DNA of 64,000 nt from Mariannaea sp. PMI_226 (taxonomy: Eukaryota; Ascomycota; Sordariomycetes; Hypocreales; Nectriaceae): positions 1-64,000 of the forward strand of contig JANFOG010000015.1 of NCBI GenBank assembly GCA_024336345.1, in the 5' to 3' direction. The translations under genes were made by a program, and so were the position numbers. Below are positions 45,089-62,759 of the stretch, piece by piece. The notes beneath the pieces are model-generated. The model was not told the origin of the DNA and searched no databases. It saw nothing but the letters and a program-made list of their open reading frames with translations. The stretch's first letter is position 1; every line of letters starts with the position of its first letter.

Positions 45089-45169
45089 GAAATTGTATTC
45101 CAATGTGACTCTCTCAAGTTTCATTCAACCTAGGCAGACACCAGATCTTTCGAGTTTCTCATCGCTAAG

Positions 45170-46302
45170 ATGGTATCACCCAATAACTGCACCCAAGTCT
45201 CTGCGGCTTGTCCGGTCGAATTGACCACATACGGCTATTATCCTGCGTTGGGACCCAATGCAGCGCTCCTCACCGTGTTTGCCATCCTGCTCTGTGCTCA
45301 GATTACATTGACTATTCTCACAAAGATCTACTCATACTCCATTGTTGTGGCTGTAGGATGCTTTGTGGAAATGCTCGGCTACGTGGGACGAGTTATGATG
45401 CATAGCAACCCATGGAACAGGCTCGGCATGCGCATGCAAATCGTCTGTCTCATCATCGCTCCCTCGTTCGCGGCAGCTGGGATCTACCTCACATTGAAGC
45501 ACACAATTCTGCACTACGGCAAGCAGTATTCCCGACTCCGACCCAAGTTATATACTTGGATCTTCATCGGCTGCGACATTGGCTCGATTCTGCTCCAAGC
45601 AGGTGGTGGTGGCATCGCTGCATCTGCCAACAGCCCCGACAAAGTTGACATTGGCAATAATGTAATCATTGCGGGAATCGCCTTTCAAGTTGTCACTATG
45701 GCCATATGCGGCGCTTTGGCCGTTGACTTTTTATTGAGGCGCTTTCGTCGCAAGCAGCAACCCAAAGACAATAATAACTTCTGCATGCACTCCTCCAGGG
45801 CCACCACCATGTTCCAGGTAGCTGTATGCTTTGCATATGTAGCCATCTTGATCCGGTCGATATATCGGTCAGCATCTTCCTTTCTCTCTCTCTCTCTCTC
45901 CCTTTCCCTTTCCTTTTCCTTTTTTTTTCTTTTTTTCTTTTTTTGCGTTCCATGTTTTCTTTAAAGGTCAATTGTCTTACTCTACGAACATTAGAATCCC
46001 TGAGATGGTGGGAGGTTGGGGAAATCCCATGATGAGAAATGAAAAAGACTTCCTTCTTCTAGATGGCTTGTAAGTGAAACGTATAGACTGTTTTGTATCT
46101 TTGGATTGAAAAAGAGAAGACTTTGTTTGGCTGACCAAGAAGGATGATTGCCCTTGCATCGATCGCCCTTACTGTCTTCCATCCAGGATTCTTCTTCCCA
46201 GCAATGAAGACCGGAGCTGGACATACTGCAAACGATTCCTCTTCATCCGATGGGCTCACGAGCATTCGCCTCGACTCCTCACCTCGAAACGAAAATAAAT
46301 AA
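45170..46302 (+). CDS. RTA1-like lipid-translocating membrane protein
   Basis: Three exons (45170-45867, 45995-46069, 46143-46302) encode 310 aa. Introns are 127 bp, with a GTCAGC donor and a very long CT/T tract, and 73 bp. About seven transmembrane helices can be traced. Family marks are E.LGYVGR in helix 2/3, QIVCLIIAPSFAAAGIYL, the loop FIGCDIGSILLQAGGGG, GIAFQVV, IRSIYRIPEMVGGWG (restored by splicing) and a helix ending TVFHPGFFFP. RTA1/RTM1/RSB1 relatives confer resistance to toxic sterols and sphingoid bases, acting as lipid exporters or sensors. Exon 3 has a CAAGAAG tandem acceptor, so an extra Arg is possible. It is convergent with a Zn2Cys6 factor gene 305 bp away. Confidence 0.92.
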
Positions 46303-46607
46303 AAGGGATACAGAGTGCTGGATGATGCATTAGGATTCTGAAATCATGAAACTCTCGGCGTAGGACAATAGGCAGAGTTTGGTCTACTATGGAGGGAAGT
46401 GGTAGATGAAGACAGAAGAACACATAGACTTGAATTTTGGCTCGTTCAACGTTCGAAGCAGTCTAAATAGAACAATCTACGTCGTCAAAAGCACACACTA
46501 TGCCCCTGTCGGTCAACGGAAACATGGGACTTATATAATGATTTTGTAAAAAAAAAAAGGGGGGGGAGGGAGAGGGGTATTTCCTCTCTGGCCACACAAC
46601 TAACTAT

Positions 46608-47829
46608 TCACGGGGTGTGGGCTAGGGAATCTATTGGGAAACGCAGTAGTTCTAGCCACTGCCCTCGAACAACAGTAGAGATCTCGTCCACAAGAGCCTT
46701 TGACCACCCTCTTGACCACCACCTTCCATTCATAGCATCAAAACAGACAGCCCAGTATGCGAGTAAGGTTAGCGCTGCGTGGTCTCTGTGTTTCAGGCCC
46801 TCAATCATCTGCTCTGAGAGCTGAATGGGCCAGCCCACCAGCAGTTCCAACAGGTCAGGACACAAGCTAATGCAAAACAAGAACTCCATTGTGAATGCTG
46901 GGAGATCCCCGGTCGATGCTGAACTGAGCGTTGTATGTCGCTGTAGTTGGTCCTCGAGCTCACCAAGCGCATGTCTTGTATCGTCTGATAACTGGGGCAG
47001 TTCATGAGGGCCAGGCACTTTTAAGAGGCCAGTCAGCTTCCCCGTCAGAAGCCAAGGTCGGGACTCGCGTGTGACGGCACGTAAGGGTTTAACCTTCCGA
47101 AGCAGCTCGATGAATTGGCCAATGGCGGAGCGTTTCGACTCGTTGCTTGACAAGAGGCTCACACGTTGTGGTAGAGTACGTGATGCGAATGTCCAGAAGG
47201 AAACCAAGGTTGAAAGAGCAAACACTTCGTCGCAGTTCTCGGAATTGATGTTCTGTAGACCTAGTCTCAGTCCCTCCAAGGCCTCAGTCTGTTTTCGAAG
47301 AGCGACGTTCTCAAGTTCTGGTGATGGCCCAGAAGTGGCAAGCCTGTGCATGGCCGCGGTAGCGAGGAGGCCAGCCAGGAGTGTGGGCTTTACCAGTGCC
47401 ATTTGAAAGATGTTATCCCGCCATGTGAGTTTCCCCATGTCACTCCCCCACAGGGTTGCGTACGTGCGTGTCAGGTATTGGTGTGTGAGGTCCAGATCAA
47501 TCAGAGACGGCTGGGAGTCTGGCCAGGACGGTTGTGATATTGGGCTGATGTCCTGCTGCGTGGGCGAAGCTGCAGACGAACTGATGACACCAAACTCAGT
47601 GATATATGAGCATATCTCTTGACGTTGCGTACATCGTTGACAGCTGGGCAGTGTTTCGTCGCACTACCTTGTGGTAAGTAAGCAGAACCAATTGCTAGAT
47701 TCATTGGTAATAGGTTTAAAACTATTCCCAAGCGTTCTCGTCGTTCCAAACTGGAGAGAAAAGAAATACCTTTACTTTCCGCCGCTTACATCTTAGGCAG
47801 CCCCGCCGTGATTTTCTATGTTCCCTCAT
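46608..47829 (-). CDS. UPC2-like Zn(II)2Cys6 transcription factor
   Basis: Two exons (47829-47770 and 47663-46608) encode 371 aa. The first exon is 60 nt (starts MREHRKSRRGCLRCKRRKVK). The 106-bp intron splits the zinc cluster exactly before the third cysteine. The spliced cluster is Cys11-x2-Cys14-x6-Cys21-x6-Cys28-x2-Cys31-x6-Cys38. The rest is helical with the pattern of the compact fungal-specific regulatory domain (LTHQYLTRTYATLW, ALVKPTLLAGLLATAAMH, RKQTEALEGLRLGLQN), as in UPC2-like factors of 350-450 aa. Targets are unknown. Convergent proximity to an RTA1-like gene fits a lipid or xenobiotic stress role, but only as inference. Confidence 0.88.
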
Positions 47830-52625: not shown

Positions 52626-53876
52626 TCATGGCGTGCTCGGCAGCACATCTCCATCATGTGGATTAGCTACAAAATCTTTGGGCACCTGACCATTGGGTGG
52701 TGCCTTGTTTATAATTGATTGTCAGCATATCGTTTCGTTCCTCTAACTGTCTCATCGAGGGACACACACCTGAAGTTTCTCTGCCCATTTCCGGACGTCG
52801 TCATAGTTCTTACACATGTGTCTTGTATTGAAGTCGGGAAACGCAGTTGGCTCATCTGGGTCCGCCCAAACTTGGCCCAGGACGCCCGTATCGACGTTGC
52901 ACATGAGCACCTGGCGGATGGTGTCGAGACAATGTGCTGGCGCGCATTAGTTCTGCAACCAACTGAGTTGGGCTGATGTCTCTATGTTTGTACTTACTGA
53001 CATGCAGCTGCAGGATCCGGTCGTCGTTCTTGAATGCATGAGCCCCCAGTTTCTTGTAGTAGGGGTAATTGAAATACAGCGACTTGCGCAACAGATTCTA
53101 TACCACAATTAGATACGGAACGCTCCCCCTTCAAGGGCCCCCCTACCCCCCTTCTCATTCAGGGTTATTAATGTAGAGACTTACCAAACAATGAAGGTGA
53201 TGCATGCCCTCGACGTTGACGATGAAACCGCCACCATACTTTTCATTGCGCTGGACAAACGAATCGTCCAAGCCGCTCTTAAGTCCATCCTCGTACGATA
53301 TCACGCCCGCTCGGTCTGTTTGGGAGTTAGCAGTGCAGTTGATACCCAGGAGTGCGACGAAGAAGCAAGAGGGAAATGGAGGAAAGAGGGCGGAGAGAGA
53401 GGGGAGGGGGGGGGGAGGGCATACAATCAACCCCTAGCGATTCCCAGGCGGCGTCTACCTCCTTGGAAGCGTTCTTCCTGAACACGTTTTCGTCCATGAA
53501 ACGTCCGTCGAATGACTGGATGGCGTATTTGATGGCCACATCCTTCAGGACAGGTGCTGCCACTCACTTGTCAGTTATGCCATTTGAAACCCGTAAAACT
53601 ACCTGTCCATAGATAGATGGATGACAGCTTACACCATTGAGTCGTATGCGCAGCGCATTTCCTGTCGAGGTCAAGATGCCCATGTGAGAGCCATGCGCCG
53701 AGGCCACCAGACAGGAGGACGATGCCAATCAACCCAACGACCTGTCCAAGGCGGCCCCCCCACGAACGATGGGGTTCCTTGCTTGGGACGAAACCATAAG
53801 GCTCAGCAAGCTCCTCCTCAGAGTCGCTGCGGTCGAGTGCTGAGTTCAAAGGGGCTTCCTCGTCTTTCTGATGCAT
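52626..53876 (-). CDS. UstYa-family (DUF3328) oxidase
   Basis: Six exons (53876-53633, 53556-53425, 53315-53185, 53097-52998, 52936-52770, 52703-52626) encode 283 aa. A short cytosolic N-terminus and one transmembrane helix (about 43-63) precede the catalytic domain. It has PVLKDVAIKYA, DGRFMDENVFRK, AAWESLGVDYR and both family motifs: HHLHC (His164-Cys168) and THCLD (His204-Cys205), the HXXHC signature. The exon-6 ending (VPKDFVAN...GDVLPSTP) matches usual UstYa C-termini. An unspliced exon 5 would end nine codons later with no such match. UstYa/UstYb proteins catalyse oxidative ring closure, halogenation or hydroxylation in fungal RiPPs and other metabolites. It lies 1.8 kb from, and divergent to, the Tyr/Gly repeat peptide gene. 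Confidence 0.92.
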
Positions 53877-55669
53877 GGCGAGAGGGTAAGAAAGTGAGTC
53901 GATTCGATGTATGAGAGTGTAAGTTGACAAGCTGACCAGATAACTAAATTGAATGAATGGATGCCCACGCCGCCACAATGCCCATTGAGCAACATAGCTA
54001 GACCAACTTACATAACCATGTGAAGTAAATTTAAGTTGGAAATGACAGGCGAAAGAAGTTGGTCGTATTGAAATCCCGCCCGCCCCTCCACACCAAAAAA
54101 AGATACAATGATAACGTTTAAACCCCCCTCTCCCCCCCCCAAAAAACATCGCCACTTTTTAGCAGCGCCCAGTCTCGGTCCAGGCTACATCCGGCGCTTT
54201 GGCATGTCTGCAAGCAACTCTCGCCATCTCACCACATGCTCAATTCATGCGAGGCGTCCACATAGTTTTTGCAGGGGTATATAGTCGATTGACCTTTCTT
54301 TTACTAGATAGAGCCTTGGAGAAGAAAACAAACAGAGTTGTAGCCAGGACGAAAGCGGGCACCAATCGCGCCGTCTCGCCTGAGAGATCACCGACAGGCT
54401 CCGGTGGTTATTTTTCTGTTCAGCTGAACAGCGCACTCATACCAATCGCGGATAGCTCAACTTAATTAGACTGCATAGCTCCAGAGCTCTCTTCAAATGA
54501 CAACGTTCATGCTACGGTTAGCTAGCAGCTCACCAAAGGAAGAGAGGGACCTTTCTGTTCGTTGTTCATTTTCACTCGCAACCACGAGCCATGAAAGAAA
54601 AGAACAAAGCAAAACAAAACAAGAAAGCCACCATCCAAAACGGATGACGTTCTCGGCCCTGCGATAACTCAATCAACTCTTCCCTCTTTGGCAGCTTCGG
54701 TTGCAAACCACCCCCCACACACACGAGATCAGCTCCATCACGGGGGGACTTTTCTCACCTCAACTAGCCAACTCAGCTTTGACTGGACGTTTGGCTAGTC
54801 AATGTACCTTTTTTGGGTTGCTCTCGTTCCTTGCTTGAGCTTCGTTCACATCACCACCGAGCTCGACCCGAGTATTACCCATTACGTTCTAGATGTATAC
54901 GTCTGCCGAGTTATTGATCGACGTGGCTTGGCGGGACTATGACAATAAGCTTCACATCAAGCAAGAAAATAAAAATACGAGGTCCTTATCTTTCCCCCAC
55001 AACCTCCGTTGAAGAACTACAAAATATGTTTGGCGAAAAATAGTCAACGCTTCAGTCCAGCTACAGTTATTAGGCCCAAGCCACCAGAACAGCACAGGAC
55101 GGCTAAGGCAAAGCTTCCAATGGCGATGATGCAATGTACAACTTGCAGCACATTGCATCACCAGGCCTAGAACGCCTCCCCTCCCCCCGGTGAGAGGGAG
55201 AGGAGTAGCTGTCGTTCGAGCCCCCATTGGATTTCTGGCTGGACGAGGCAAGGATGCCTTAACGGACAGATCCGAGTTAGCCGGAAGGGCTAGAATGGGC
55301 TTGAATTTGATGATCACTTACATCTTTGGTCGTGAGCCTCGAGCAGGATGGCGTCCTTCCCCCCCCCCCCCCCCCCCCCTTCCCCCACAAAGCACGCCGG
55401 TAAGCACAAACTTGGATAGTTTTCCCAACGTAGGTCTGACTGAGAAGGTTGGTTGGAATGTTCTGATAATGTAATACGGTCTTGGTGTTTAAAAAGAGCT
55501 TGTCCTCTCCTCTCCTGCCCTCCCTTTCACACTTTTCAGTTCCTTCAGCCTTGACTGTATAAGTCGATCTTTCAAACAAACTCTTGTCACAATTGCAGCT
55601 TCTCATATCTCAGACAGCAAGAACACCAACAACAGCAAGGTCACACACACACGCACCTATCTCGTCAAT
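53877..55669. other. divergent promoter region between the UstYa and repeat-peptide genes
   Basis: About 1.8 kb shared upstream region. It contains a 21-nt C run at 55359-55379, CT-rich stretches before the peptide gene and a TATA-like word at 55558. No coding gene is supported inside it. Divergent genes with one promoter region are often co-regulated. Confidence 0.5.
55558..55563 (+). promoter_or_regulatory. TATA-like element of the repeat-peptide gene
   Basis: TATAAG at 112 bp upstream of the ATG at 55670, preceded by CT-rich sequence (55501-55550) and followed by an A/C-rich leader of the type seen in highly expressed fungal genes. Confidence 0.4.
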
Positions 55670-56056
55670 ATGAAGCTGTCCCTCGCCATCCTCGCTACCA
55701 TTGCCACGGCAGCTCTCGCTGCCCCTGCTCCTGTGGCTGTTCCAGAAGCTGCCCCAGCTCCCGCCGACGAGAAGAATGAGGCTCGCGGCTATGGTGGCTA
55801 CGGAGACTATAAGGACGCTGGCAAAAAGGCCTCCTATGCTTCCTATGGAGATTATAAGGGTGCCGGCACCGGCAAGTCAACCAATGGAAAGTATGGCAGC
55901 TATGGTACATACAAGGATGCTGGCAAGAAGGCTTCTTATGCTTCTTACGGCGACTACAAGGGTGCTGGCACTGGCAAGCCGTCTAATGGAAAGTACGGCA
56001 GCTATGGCAACTACCCCCCTCCTAAGGGCGGATACAGCAGCTACGGTCATTACTGA
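55670..56056 (+). CDS. secreted Tyr/Gly-rich repeat peptide; possible RiPP precursor
   Basis: A single exon encodes 128 aa. Residues 1-18 are a clear signal peptide (cleavage near ALA-AP). An Ala/Pro/Glu-rich propeptide to about residue 39 follows, ending EAR. Two 34-residue repeats (47-80 and 81-114) then differ at only three residues and start YKDAGKKASYASYGDY. The tail is PPPKGGYSSYGHY. About fourteen codons differ silently between the repeats, so the protein sequence is under constraint. There is no cysteine. Dibasic KK occurs once per repeat, but there is no KR. Signal, propeptide and repeated Tyr-bearing cores resemble UstA-type precursors, and a UstYa gene is the divergent neighbour. 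The alternative is a structural Gly/Tyr-rich cell-wall or adhesive protein, which is equally plausible from sequence alone. Confidence 0.85.
   Translation: MKLSLAILATIATAALAAPAPVAVPEAAPAPADEKNEARGYGGYGDYKDAGKKASYASYGDYKGAGTGKSTNGKYGSYGTYKDAGKKASYASYGDYKGAGTGKPSNGKYGSYGNYPPPKGGYSSYGHY
55808..56011 (+). repeat. two 102-bp in-frame repeats
   Basis: 55808-55909 and 55910-56011 encode near-identical 34-residue units. DNA differences are mostly at third positions; the only residue changes are Ser/Pro, Thr/Ser and a terminal Thr/Asn. Confidence 0.92.
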
Positions 56057-58184: not shown

Positions 58185-59243
58185 TTAGAGACGACTCAAT
58201 GGCAAATCTTCCCGCTCAAGGAAGTTGTTAATAATTTTGGAGAACTCTTCCGCATATTGAAATAAAAACCCGTGCCCAGAATCCGGAAAGAGATGCAGCT
58301 GTCCATTCGCTTTATTTAATTTCCTCCACATCAGATAGCTATTCTCTGACGGCAATAGCAAATCCTCAGAACCTGGAGCTTATTAGCTGTGTCGTTTTGT
58401 TGCGATCGTTGTCTCAGAACCGATGTCTAACTCACCGTTGGCAATCAGAACAGGGAGGGTTAACTCGTTAAACCGATTGTAAGAAGCGTTTTGGGCCTGT
58501 TTTGGGTCCATAAACTTTGCGAATGCAATCCCCTGCCTGCGAGCGTTGGCGGCATCGACATGGCCAGATCTATTATTTCGGGCCGTGATGATTCTCTTCC
58601 AGGATTCTTCTCCTGCTTTTCGACTGCGTGCCGAGGTGTTAAAAAATCCATCAAGAAACGCTTCTTTGTGCTCTTCCTCGGTCGAGGCCGCCTTCAGCTT
58701 GTTAAAGGGCCCGAGCGGTGCGGTGACAACTCCATCTCCGGTGCTCGGGATCGTGCCGCATAGGATAAGGCGACGAGTGAGAACGGGTGCCTGAAGAGCC
58801 ACCAGCTGCGCAACACATCCTCCCATGGAAAACCCCATCACATCAGCCTTCTCAAAGCCCAGCGCACGGATGACATCGATGTAATATTTTGCCCAATCCG
58901 CAAAGATCGTGGGAACTTGACCCTCAGACCGTCCCACGCCGGCATTGTCAATTAAGAGGACAGGGCGTCTTTCTGCAAGTGGGTTGATCAAATTTGGGTC
59001 CCAATGGTCCATAGTTCCCCTGTTCGCGATCAGTCTCAATATTTCTTTTGGTAAAAGAAACACCCTCCCCCCTTCCCAACAAAAAAAACTAGAAAATAGA
59101 AACAGAATCCTCATCATGGCGACTCACCGAAAGTGCATGAGCAACACGAGTGGGACGCCCTTTGTAGGACCGAGGAGTCGGTAGGCAAACTTGATGCCAC
59201 CAACAGTGACAAACTGATCTTTTGCCGTCTGGTAAGTCGCCAT
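58185..59243 (-). CDS. alpha/beta-hydrolase fold enzyme
   Basis: Three exons (59243-59128, 59019-58436, 58372-58185) encode 295 aa. The first exon gives MATYQTAKDQFVTVGG through HFR, reaching the oxyanion region (PLVLLMHFRG). The nucleophile elbow is GFSMGG with Ser103. Asp237 (SEDLLLP) and His267 (SGHGFLFQ) complete the triad. Overall it resembles single-domain hydrolases of the haloperoxidase/ester-hydrolase group. The substrate is unknown. It has no signal peptide, so it is probably cytosolic. The protein ends ERED...SRL at a TAA at 58185. It lies between the repeat-peptide and TauD genes and could be part of the same locus, but these enzymes are common everywhere. Confidence 0.88.
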
Positions 59244-61400
59244 GCCTGGTTTCATTCCAATTATGTTTTTCTTTCTTATTTTGAATGCAAATGTATTTTC
59301 TCTCTTCGTCTTGTTGAAAAAAATCCAGAGAGATGTAGTGAACTACAAGAATGCCGAGACCGAGGTATCGGGTATGAGTCAGGTGATCTGACCCCGCGGC
59401 ATCTCCACGAGAAGCCATTCATTATCCATCGGCGATTGAGAACAAGTTCCGGCAACTATACCTTATTGCAAACAGTCAGACTCCATTTGCCTATATGAGA
59501 CATAAATGCGGACTTTACACCATCAATGTATCAAGAAGATATGGGTTGTTCTTCCTCTGCCATGCTCAATCGCATCTACATACCATCGGCATGGGTGATT
59601 CGAAGTTACAAAGAGTTCACCCCAAGCCGAGGACGGCCAGTCTCAGTTGATTCAATAAAATCTTCGGACTAGATCAATTCATCTACCATTACCTGTCAGC
59701 ATGGATGCCAAGTGAAAAAAAAGGAAAAGGAAAGAAAAGAAAAAAAGAAAAGAAAGAAAGCCTGTCCATTATTTAGAAAACCGGGGGAAACGCATCAATG
59801 AATATCTGGGTGAATCTGGGCATGAGATACTGAACCGACGTCTGCCGAAAGAGAAGCTTAAGACCTTACTGCAATTGACTAGATATTCGGGACTATAGCT
59901 TATAATGGCTCACCCAGAGAACTGAATACAGTCCAATTATCTTTTTTGTGTGGTCGGGTCCCGCGTAGAGGTTTGATGATTTGGACCTCGACAGGAAGAA
60001 CATGGCTGGGGATATCAACTCGGTGGCTGAACAGGTCATTGTTTCGATCTCACCTAGGGTTGAAGTTGTTTGAATATTCTACTACTCTTACAACCGCGGC
60101 TGAATAACATGAAACTTCAGTTCTCGTCCTGGGGAATATGTCGCCATAGTCTCTCCACCTCGCGTCGAGACGGTATTCTGTGACCTCAATCACACACTCT
60201 CTTTCTATAACAGGCGCCATGAAGGGGCAGCACAAGCGACTAAACGCCTAGTTTTACTCGCCAAACTAATTGAAGAAGCTTGGTAAAGACTCAGTTTAGT
60301 TGATCATCAACTAGAGGCAAAGTTAGGGTAGGACGAAGGGTGTGTCAAGTGGACGGGGTCCTACTAACATGACAGTGCAGGTAGATGTTGCATAGAAAAT
60401 GCAGGGAGTAACACATCAACTAGAGGGATGATACCAATGAGTGACTATCCCGACCGAGAGCCAGAGATGTGCTTATGCAATGAGTGGAGATGTTCTCTTC
60501 CTTTATGAAGATCTAAGCAAAGCAGACGCCGAGTCTGAGGCCGAGATTGAGAAGGTTTAGCATTAAAAAAACGGCTTCCTACTAAGGAGCTGATAAGTCG
60601 AAATCTTGGCATGCTATTTTCTCTATTATCAGAAACTCAGGCATATATATCTCACCTTTCATGACCGCCAGCAACATCGAGGCGAGTCCAGAAACCCAAC
60701 AAGCAGCACTGGCTGGTAGTTAACTCGTCCATTCCCACCATGTACAATTACTTGATCATGAACAGCATGGCGTGACCAGGCCCTTGATATGGCGACACCC
60801 AGCTTGGCGCCGTCGCATCAACCTCAAGCATGTCGTGATGGCGCAATCCTCCAGTCCCACTCTTATCATTTTCCTTCTCCAGCAGAGAAACAGAGCGGCA
60901 CTTGTGAGAAGCGTCACTTGGGGGAGGGGCCAGTTGTCATGTTAATCCTATTGCGTCATTTGATCGGAGATGTTGCTGTGTCGCTGCGCCCTTTGCTAAC
61001 ATCCGGCACCATTGGCCTGGAACAGCGTCATCTGTCGACATGATGCTTTTGTTTCGTTGCCGATTGACGAATCGAATTGCATGGCGACCGGGCAATCTTG
61101 ACGTTTCCCTGCGCTGACATATCAAGAAGGGCGATGGCGATGCTACAGCCTAGTTTGAGATATGCCCGGTGCCGGTGCCGATGCCCAGCATGACGAAACC
61201 TCGATGGAGGAGAAGAAGAAGATTTGATCGTCTATAAAAGGACTCCACTGCACGTCTGCAGAAGAAGATTTGATGGCTGACTTTTGAAATTAAGAGGCAT
61301 CAGCAGAACTAGAGACTATTAGTATATTGAATCGCCATTTACGTCTGCCATCTCAACTCTGATATCGCAATAAAGCAATAATTCAACAATAAAAGAAAGA
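59244..61400. other. divergent promoter region between hydrolase and TauD genes
   Basis: About 2.2 kb between divergent start codons. It contains an A/G-rich stretch at 59713-59762 and, near the right end, a TATA box and two copies of a 15-bp word. No gene is supported. Confidence 0.55.
61214..61274 (+). promoter_or_regulatory. TauD-gene core promoter: TATA box between two 15-bp direct repeats
   Basis: AGAAGAAGATTTGAT occurs at 61214-61228 and 61260-61274, bracketing TATAAAAG (61233-61240). The start codon is at 61401. The perfect repeat suggests a factor-binding site or a small tandem duplication. Confidence 0.55.
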
Positions 61401-62759
61401 ATGCCTCCTTCAGCAACGGAAACAGTCACCAGCAGCTTGGCCCAGGCCACAGCCAACCTGAAGCTTTATTCTGGAAGCAACGAGAGCGCCTACAAGGAAA
61501 TTGCTCCTGTTGCCTTTTCCAAGGCAGTTGAGGAGGTGGGATCTGAAGAGCATGCCGCTGCCAAGGTGTGTGTCATCATTTATTTGCCTGACAAGTAGCT
61601 ACCTTTCTTTTATTACCTACATCATGTCTGTCTCATGTATCGCCAAATCTCGACTACTAACATACTTTTTTTTTCAGTACCCCAACTACCTCCCAACCTG
61701 GAACAAGGACGTGACCTACCCTCCTCTCCAGCCCTTTGAGCATTACGATCACGGAAAGGACGCCGATACATCGTTTCCTAACCTCATCACCAAGGATACC
61801 AAGGTTGTCCACCTCACACCCACCATCGGCACTGAGATTTCCGGTATCCAACTCAGCAAGCTCTCCAATGCCGGCAAAGACGAGCTTGCCCGCTACGTGG
61901 CTGAACGTAAGGTCGTAGCCTTCCGCGCTCAGGACTTTGCCGACCTGTCCATTGACGAAGCTCTCAAATTTGGCGAGTACTTTGGCCGTCATCACATCCA
62001 TCCTACGTCAGGAGCCCCTGCCGGACATCCTGAGATTCACCTTGTGCACCGCGGTGCTGGCGACAAGTCACACGAGACCTTCTTCCAGACCCGTCTGAGC
62101 TCTGTAGCCTGGCACTCGGATGTCACATACGAACAGCAACCCCCTGGCACAACATTCCTGTATAATCTCGACATCCCCGAGACTGGTGGTGATACCCTGT
62201 TCGCCAACGCTGCCGAGGCTTATAACCGATTATCTCCCTCCTTCCAGAAGCTTCTCCACGGCCTCAAGGCTACTCACTCGGGCATCGAACAGATCAATGC
62301 CAGCGTGCGAAAGGGCAGTGTTAAGCGACGGGAACCTGTCGTTTCCGAGCATCCTATCGTCCGAACGCACCCTGTTACGGGCGAGAAGGCTCTTTTTATC
62401 AATCCCCAGTGTAAGTCAAAACTCAAGTTTTATAAAAGAGAGAATTTAAAATAAACCCCCCCCCCCTTTTGTTTCAACCATGAGCACTCGTGGCTAATCA
62501 CTCTTTCAAAGTTACCCGCAGCATCGTCGGCCTCAAGAAAGAAGAGTCTGATGCCATTCTCAACTTCCTCTACGAGCACATCGCCTGGGGTGCCGACTTC
62601 CACGCCCGCGTCAAGTGGGAAGAGGGTACCGTTGTTGTTTGGGACAACCGTCTGGTCCAACATACTGCCCTTGTTGACTGGAAGACTGGCCAGCGAAGGC
62701 ATCTTGCCCGTATCACGCCGCAGGCCGAGCGACCCTATGAAACCCCCTTTGAGGGTTAA
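61401..62759 (+). CDS. TauD/TfdA-type 2-oxoglutarate dioxygenase
   Basis: Three exons (61401-61565, 61678-62410, 62512-62759) encode 381 aa. Intron 1 has a CTAAC branch site and T-rich acceptor; intron 2 carries a C10-type run. The Fe(II) ligands are His201 and Asp203 (AWHSDVTY) and His350 (VQHTALVDW), with Arg362/Arg366 for 2-oxoglutarate. The blocks VAERKVVAFRAQDF, HPTSGAPAGHPEIHLVHR and PPGTTFLYN are typical of the fungal sulfonate/taurine dioxygenase group (yeast Jlp1), which releases sulfite from sulfonates for sulfur assimilation. Other substrates are possible, since relatives also occur in biosynthetic clusters. There is no signal peptide. Confidence 0.92.

What the first reader, a model, noticed from the sequence alone, without database searches (positions are those of the whole stretch)
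52626..56056. UstYa oxidase divergent to a repeat Tyr/Gly peptide: possible new RiPP-like system
Known: UstYa-family proteins act on fungal RiPP precursors that have a signal peptide and repeated Tyr-containing cores (ustiloxin, asperipin, phomopsin types). Seen here: a full UstYa gene with both His/Cys motifs beside a signal-peptide protein with two conserved repeats, each with KK followed by ASYASYGDY. No KR sites are present, so processing would have to differ from the usual kexin rule. That would make the system novel if real.
Basis: inference. Interest (0 to 1): 0.75.

Follow-up and report, generated by a model that had tools for sequence, protein, structure and literature searches.

The report
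Overlooked tyrosine-repeat peptide beside UstYa oxidase
A mould carries a small, apparently unannotated gene for a secreted peptide made of tyrosine-glycine repeats next to an oxidase of the kind that cross-links tyrosines in fungal peptide natural products, and similar gene pairs seem to occur in at least three other fungi, so it may make a cross-linked peptide that current search rules would mostly miss.

Summary
UstYa (53876..52626, minus, six exons) is identical to Mariannaea sp. PMI_226 BGZ63DRAFT_395695 and has both HxxHC motifs. A 128-aa secreted-looking Y/G repeat protein (55670..56056, plus) lies 1.8 kb away, divergent; the protein collection returned no identical copy. Its two repeats differ at 19 of 34 codons, 15 silently. 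The pairing is unlikely to be chance: the 4 other UstYa loci found in this genome all hold a nearby tandem-repeat precursor (5 in all), against 0 of 12 control blocks; and in 3 of 5 species checkable, relatives of both proteins have neighbouring locus tags on contigs of equal length. In Coniochaeta the contigs differ. Relatives share Y-x-x-Y-G-x-Y heptads; 35 of 53 have KR/RR right after the last one, but 51 of 53 give at most two Kex2-delimited Y fragments, mostly below published KEP filters. Best reading: a dikaritin-like RiPP whose long multi-heptad segment is cut out at its ends and oxidised by UstYa. Expression, product and cross-links are not shown. New variant of a known kind.

The parts
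52626..53876 (-). UstYa-family (PF11807) oxidase gene, six exons 53876-53633, 53556-53425, 53315-53185, 53097-52998, 52936-52770, 52703-52626; 283 aa, long N-terminal helix (membrane anchor by eye), HHLHC and HVTHC
53877..55669 (.). 1.8-kb divergent intergenic region, presumably holding both promoters
   Evidence: promoter function not tested
55670..56056 (+). single-exon secreted-looking Tyr/Gly repeat protein, 128 aa, putative precursor; six Y..YG.Y heptads (overlaps counted)
55670..55786 (+). signal peptide and pro-region, ending NEAR39 (putative cleavage after Arg39)
   Evidence: junction by comparison with relatives
55787..56053 (+). putative excised segment, residues 40-128 (89 aa), ends exactly at the last heptad
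   Evidence: cleavage inferred
55790..55993 (+). two 34-codon repeats, YGxYGxYKDAGKKASYASYGDYKGAGTGKxxNGK

Best explanation
A two-gene core of a dikaritin-like RiPP pathway. The repeat protein enters the secretory pathway by its signal peptide; the membrane-anchored UstYa protein, with its catalytic part in the ER/Golgi lumen, oxidises tyrosines of the Y-x-x-Y-G-x-Y heptads, most likely making ether links between a Tyr ring and a nearby carbon as proposed for AprY on FYYTGY of asperipin-2a. Proteolysis after Arg at the leader junction (and at KR/RR at the other end in most relatives; in this species the protein ends there), perhaps also at KK, releases a secreted peptide holding several modified heptads. 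Shown: both genes, motifs, protein-level constraint on the repeats, recurrent pairing. Inferred: modification, its chemistry, cleavage, secretion, expression.
For: UstYa intact and identical to a deposited protein. Repeats kept at protein level. In the same genome the 4 other UstYa loci found (6 UstYa genes by my reading; the search gives lower bounds) all have a tandem-repeat precursor 1.4-2.7 kb from a UstYa match, 4 of 5 divergent as here; 5 precursors in about 84 kb against none in 12 ten-kb control blocks. Neighbouring locus tags plus equal contig length in three other fungi: SPI_06361/06362, SCUCBS95973_009899/009900, B0T16DRAFT_409532/409530. These three UstYa proteins are 57-61% identical to the window's; the UstYa paralogues in its own genome 26-39%, in partial alignments. 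A dibasic KR/RR directly after the last heptad in 35 of 53. One UstYa homologue, in a four-gene cluster, serves the Tyr-rich asperipin-2a (PMC6514808, passages).
Against: No expression, product or mass shift is known. In Coniochaeta sp. 2T2.1 the family member and the UstYa relative lie on contigs of different length (4453468 and 4640340), and in Apiospora arundinis contig lengths also differ (7581536 and 7098314); other strains or UstYa paralogues might explain that. Only 5 of the 16 species named among the 52 family hits appear among the 120 UstYa relatives listed of 523, so the pairing was checkable in few. UstYa proteins also act elsewhere (hydroxylation, chlorination in cyclochlorotine; PMC12048977 passage). 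The window protein lacks KR. Heptad counts are partly circular because the relatives were found by that similarity. The control scan's threshold was set after a first look.
Confidence: 0.68

Rival explanations
1. The repeat protein is a Tyr/Gly-rich structural, adhesive or cell-wall protein (or a linear secreted signal peptide) and the UstYa neighbour serves something else.
For: Composition resembles structural Tyr/Gly proteins (recalled); no KR/RR inside 20 of 21 definable segments; a family member not on the contig of the UstYa relative in Coniochaeta.
Against: Neighbouring locus tags in three other species; the 4 other UstYa loci found in this genome all have a repeat precursor nearby; small size and end-processing sites suit a secreted peptide.
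Confidence: 0.17
2. UstYa does act on the protein, but to cross-link whole secreted chains into an insoluble or wall-bound polymer rather than to make a defined peptide (overlaps in part with the best explanation).
For: Several Tyr heptads on one chain with PPPAGG/KGAG-like linkers; no KR/RR between them in 20 of 21 definable segments.
Against: KR/RR right after the last heptad in 35 of 53, often with a short tail, points to a defined released peptide; I recall no UstYa that makes inter-chain links.
Confidence: 0.1
3. A more classical multi-core precursor: KK sites cut the window protein into three Y-containing pieces, each a separate core (a variant within the RiPP reading, so its odds overlap with the best explanation).
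For: KK counts as a Kex2 site in published surveys; cutting at KK gives three Y-containing fragments; another UstYa locus here has KK in its repeats.
Against: The layout is not shared: 51 of 53 family members give at most two such fragments.
Confidence: 0.15

Closest known systems
Asperipin-2a (aprA/aprY, dikaritin)
   Same: One UstYa homologue, Tyr-rich core, small cluster (PMC6514808, passages)
   Different: Core FYYTGY, repeated in a precursor with Kex2 sites; here Y-x-x-Y-G-x-Y heptads strung on one segment without KR between them; equivalents of aprT/aprR not identified
Ustiloxin / phomopsin dikaritins
   Same: UstYa oxidases, ER-targeted repeat precursor (PMC6514808, PMC7329392, passages)
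   Different: Cores YAIG / YVIP cut at KR, with a tyrosinase and further enzymes; no tyrosinase among the 7 neighbouring ORF stretches given to Pfam
KEPs (Kex2-processed repeat proteins)
   Same: Secreted, repetitive, short
   Different: One survey needs at least 3 repeats between Kex2 sites (PMC7329392), another at least four fragments (PMC6339444); 51 of 53 members have at most two Y-containing fragments
Epichloecyclins (gigA)
   Same: Repeat precursor, Tyr-based oxidative ring (PMC6514808)
   Different: Different core; KR sites in the repeats

Membership tests
UstYa (PF11807) oxidases | Pfam model above cut-off | tested here: met
   181 bits, cut-off 25
UstYa (PF11807) oxidases | two HxxHC motifs (PMC12048977, passage) | tested here: met
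   HHLHC and HVTHC; kept in an alignment of 52 sequences chosen from 120 listed
Dikaritin RiPPs | UstYa-family gene close to precursor gene | tested here: met
   1.8 kb, divergent; also by locus tag and contig length in 3 of 5 checkable species
Dikaritin RiPPs | ER signal peptide on precursor | tested here: inconclusive
   Typical N-terminus by eye; no predictor run
Dikaritin RiPPs | repeated cores separated by Kex2 sites | tested here: inconclusive
   Repeats yes; two KK but no KR in the window; 51 of 53 family members give at most two Y-containing fragments
Dikaritin RiPPs | oxidatively cross-linked product | not testable with these tools
   needs LC-MS/MS
Dikaritin RiPPs | tyrosinase, methyltransferase, transporter or peptidase in cluster (original definition; later work drops some, PMC12048977 passage) | tested here: inconclusive
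   No tyrosinase or methyltransferase among 7 neighbouring stretches scanned with Pfam; an alpha/beta hydrolase just above the Hydrolase_4 (S33) cut-off is there
KEP (survey definitions) | at least 3 tandem repeats of at least 8 aa between Kex2 sites, or at least four fragments | tested here: inconclusive
   Window protein gives 3 Y-containing fragments if KK is cut: fewer than four; the repeat score of the other survey was not run

The most novel reading that the evidence does not exclude
A distinct and widespread ascomycete RiPP class: UstYa converts a string of Y-x-x-Y-G-x-Y heptads on one ~30-100-residue secreted segment into a ladder of cross-linked rings, excised as one piece at its two ends instead of being cut into small cores. 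It would have escaped surveys because the genes are short, apparently often unannotated, and have too few internal Kex2 sites.
Probability: 0.35. Interest if true: 0.78.

Novelty: new variant of a known kind. Interest (0 to 1): 0.6.

Why it matters
Only five dikaritins had been reported by 2022 (PMC10512285, passage), although 22% of 7878 KEP genes have a DUF3328 (UstYa) gene nearby (PMC7329392, passage). A large group of close UstYa relatives (523 found) would gain a substrate family with a motif that can be searched directly, and mining rules based on Kex2-separated repeats would be shown to miss a class. If the long segment stays in one piece it would be an unusually large multi-ring fungal RiPP (size comparison recalled).

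Tried and rejected
Solved-structure and fold comparison of UstYa gave nothing: no sequence match in the PDB at E up to 1; AlphaFold2 model of moderate confidence (mean pLDDT 71.6, pTM 0.60) with the two HxxHC motifs on two helices (161-186, 195-215); Foldseek against PDB gave 5 matches at E up to 10, none at 0.001 or better.

Scans of viral and of bacterial/archaeal contigs with UstYa found no relative, so synteny rests on locus tags and contig lengths only. Pfam and NCBIfam do not know the repeat protein. No tree of UstYa was built, so orthology is judged by identity alone.

A hidden C-terminal exon restoring a KR tail was looked for by eye in three frames over about 600 bases after the stop and not seen; P0001 from Fusarium keratoplasticum also ends at the last heptad. 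P0001 and P0005 look like gene-prediction fusions and were left out of profile A2 (2 of 6 hits) but kept in the counts.

Control scan: (at least 20 residues in repeated 5-mers) also gave two overlapping low-complexity ORFs at 10.0 kb of the window, one place; one search asked for 30 residues and six residue types, set after that look, which drops them. The random stretches come from four contigs only (C2, C7, C19, C20), away from UstYa loci; the 6 fetched are my pick from the 60 drawn. Window blocks and L021 share a contig with the finding.

Of 83 ORFs of 110 aa or more only stretches near the finding went to Pfam: the repeat protein and 7 neighbours; tailoring genes elsewhere in the window are not excluded. 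One search was translated one base out of frame and is not used.

Full report
What is there. The window is the start of contig C7 of a 42.2-Mb, 25-contig genome; C7 is 970319 bases, the same length as the contig of P0053, Mariannaea sp. PMI_226; Mariannaea is a genus of Nectriaceae. On the minus strand 53876..52626 lies a six-exon UstYa gene; the spliced 283-aa protein equals BGZ63DRAFT_395695. It has a long N-terminal helix in the model (39-65), HHLHC at 164-168 and HVTHC at 201-205. In an alignment of 52 sequences (it and 51 of the 119 other listed relatives) H165, H167, H201, H204 and C205 are invariant, H164 and C168 nearly so. On the plus strand 55670..56056 an intron-less ORF gives a 128-aa protein with a signal-peptide-like start (by eye) and two 34-residue repeats. 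The best of 6 hits in a search of 5.8 billion proteins is 69% identical over 42% of the query, so no identical protein was returned and the gene seems unannotated.

Is it more than chance. The repeats differ at 19 of 34 codons and 15 of these changes are silent, so the protein sequence is being kept. The whole-protein search finds the gene once in the genome. A search with a five-sequence profile (A2) returns 52 proteins at E up to 1, 31 of them at 1e-3 or better; only the 7997 candidates sharing most words were scored. Sixteen carry species or strain names, all ascomycetes as I recall; the rest are unnamed. With the window protein, 52 of 53 have two or more Y..YG.Y heptads (partly circular, since they were found by this similarity), 35 of 53 have KR or RR directly after the last heptad, and 2 (the window and P0001) end there. 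In 196 heptads position 2 is mostly G/A/S, position 3 mostly S, position 6 mostly S/D/T/K. Twenty-one of 52 have a short hydrophobic tail such as KRAVDWVKSLFA. Of 36 with a dibasic tail site by the looser rule, a leader Arg could be placed in 21; the segment between has median length 52 and range 27-106, and 20 of 21 lack internal KR/RR (KK not counted).

Does the oxidase belong to it. First, the same genome. PF11807 finds 10 stretches (lower bounds by the tool's own statement), which I read as 7 UstYa genes: this one and 6 at 4 other loci (C20:3835/3842 kb, C2:1664/1666 kb, C2:1248 kb, C19:3959 kb). A scan for ORFs with repeated 5-mers finds a tandem-repeat precursor at all 4 other loci, 5 precursors in all, 1.4-2.7 kb from the nearest UstYa match and divergent in 4 of 5. 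Signal-peptide-like starts are visible in the same frame for two and in an upstream frame, presumably across an intron, for three. The scan finds none in 12 control blocks of 10 kb: 6 random stretches, 5 blocks of the window, and L021. The scanned UstYa loci amount to about 84 kb against 120 kb of controls. The cores differ (DVDYIREGR, DVNAPDWKR, GNHLWKNSAPE, DGVANWQWKKEAR, NTNIYCFIDKR). In two of them (E/K)AR directly precedes cores, as NEAR precedes the heptads here, and in a third EAR follows KK. That UstYa genes crowd next to repeat precursors is known: their count peaks at the gene next to a KEP (PMC7329392, passage), and nine such clusters were described in Venturia (PMC9632046, passage).

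Second, other genomes. No fungal genomes could be searched, but the two protein searches can be crossed. Three pairs share contig length and have neighbouring locus tags: Niveomyces insectorum SPI_06362/SPI_06361 (1126750), Sporothrix curviconia SCUCBS95973_009900/009899 (23722), Cercophora newfieldiana B0T16DRAFT_409530/409532 (5353116; numbers two apart). Of the 16 named species only 5 appear among the 120 UstYa relatives listed (523 found); 3 of these 5 pair, Coniochaeta sp. 2T2.1 does not (different contigs), and Apiospora arundinis shows different contig lengths. The three paired UstYa proteins are 57-61% identical to the window's; the UstYa paralogues in its own genome match at 26-39% in partial alignments. 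So the pairing seems to follow one group of close UstYa relatives; no tree was built.

How it probably works. UstYa proteins cyclise ustiloxin, phomopsin and asperipin-2a; asperipin-2a needs one UstYa homologue, AprY, on the core FYYTGY, with ether links between Tyr side chains and beta-carbons (PMC6514808, passages). By analogy the heptads, with three tyrosines each, are the substrate. The piece is freed at the leader Arg and, in most relatives, at KR/RR behind the last heptad; in Mariannaea the stop codon takes that place. Whether KK inside the window protein is used is open: surveys count KK as a Kex2 site (PMC7329392, PMC6339444, passages), but 51 of 53 members give at most two Y-containing fragments when cut at all dibasic sites. 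I therefore favour one long excised segment over many small cores. Chemistry, cleavage and secretion are inferred.

What is known. Umemura's survey asks for at least 3 repeats between Kex2 sites and Le Marquer's for at least four fragments; 51 of 53 members have too few Y-containing fragments, which may be why I did not meet the family in print. In the held library SYGDY gives 6 papers and SYGSY/YGSYG/SYGTY/GSYGDY 19 papers, none on fungal RiPPs by title. Searches on UstYa, dikaritin, DUF3328 and Tyr-rich Kex2 peptides showed 20 of 20, 40 of 515, 25 of 571, 15 of 1297, 20 of 60 and 20 of 24 papers; none shown names this motif in its title or the start of its abstract. From 8 papers I saw passages (PMC7329392, PMC7099791, PMC6339444, PMC9632046, PMC12048977, PMC6514808, PMC10512285, PMC9233826), from PMC7329392 also the first part of one section. 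Figures, supplementary tables and subscription papers such as Nagano 2016 were not seen; the 838 KEP types of PMC7329392 could include relatives.

Verdict. No product is known.

Noticed in passing
L012 7262-7468 and L013 8214-8750 (G000 C20): Two UstYa genes about 6 kb apart, each with its own repeat precursor nearby: DVNAPDWK repeats with KR, and DVDYIREGR repeats with (E/K)AR junctions.
   Followed up: partly
L015 5178-5711 (G000 C2): Precursor-like secreted protein with nine GNHLWKNSAPE-like repeats and no dibasic sites between them, near two UstYa genes: a second case without Kex2 sites.
   Followed up: partly
L017 6811-7350 (G000 C2): Repeat precursor DGVANWQWKKEAR with KK as the only dibasic site between cores, divergent from a UstYa gene.
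   Followed up: partly
L019 6559-6849 (G000 C19): Three NTNIYCFIDKR repeats containing Cys, divergent from a UstYa gene.
   Followed up: no
window 45164-47663: RTA1-like membrane protein (plus) and a Fungal_trans_2 transcription factor (minus) on one side of the pair; cluster membership unknown.
   Followed up: no
window 58386-62451: Alpha/beta hydrolase just above the Hydrolase_4 (S33) cut-off (minus) and a TauD-type dioxygenase (plus) on the other side; could be tailoring enzymes.
   Followed up: no
P0001 (Fusarium keratoplasticum), P0005 (Sporothrix bragantina): Deposited proteins in which the heptad peptide is joined to an unrelated protein (P0001: ATPase-like piece, recalled; P0005: snoRNP protein by its name and Pfam PF04135), apparently gene-prediction errors.
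   Followed up: no
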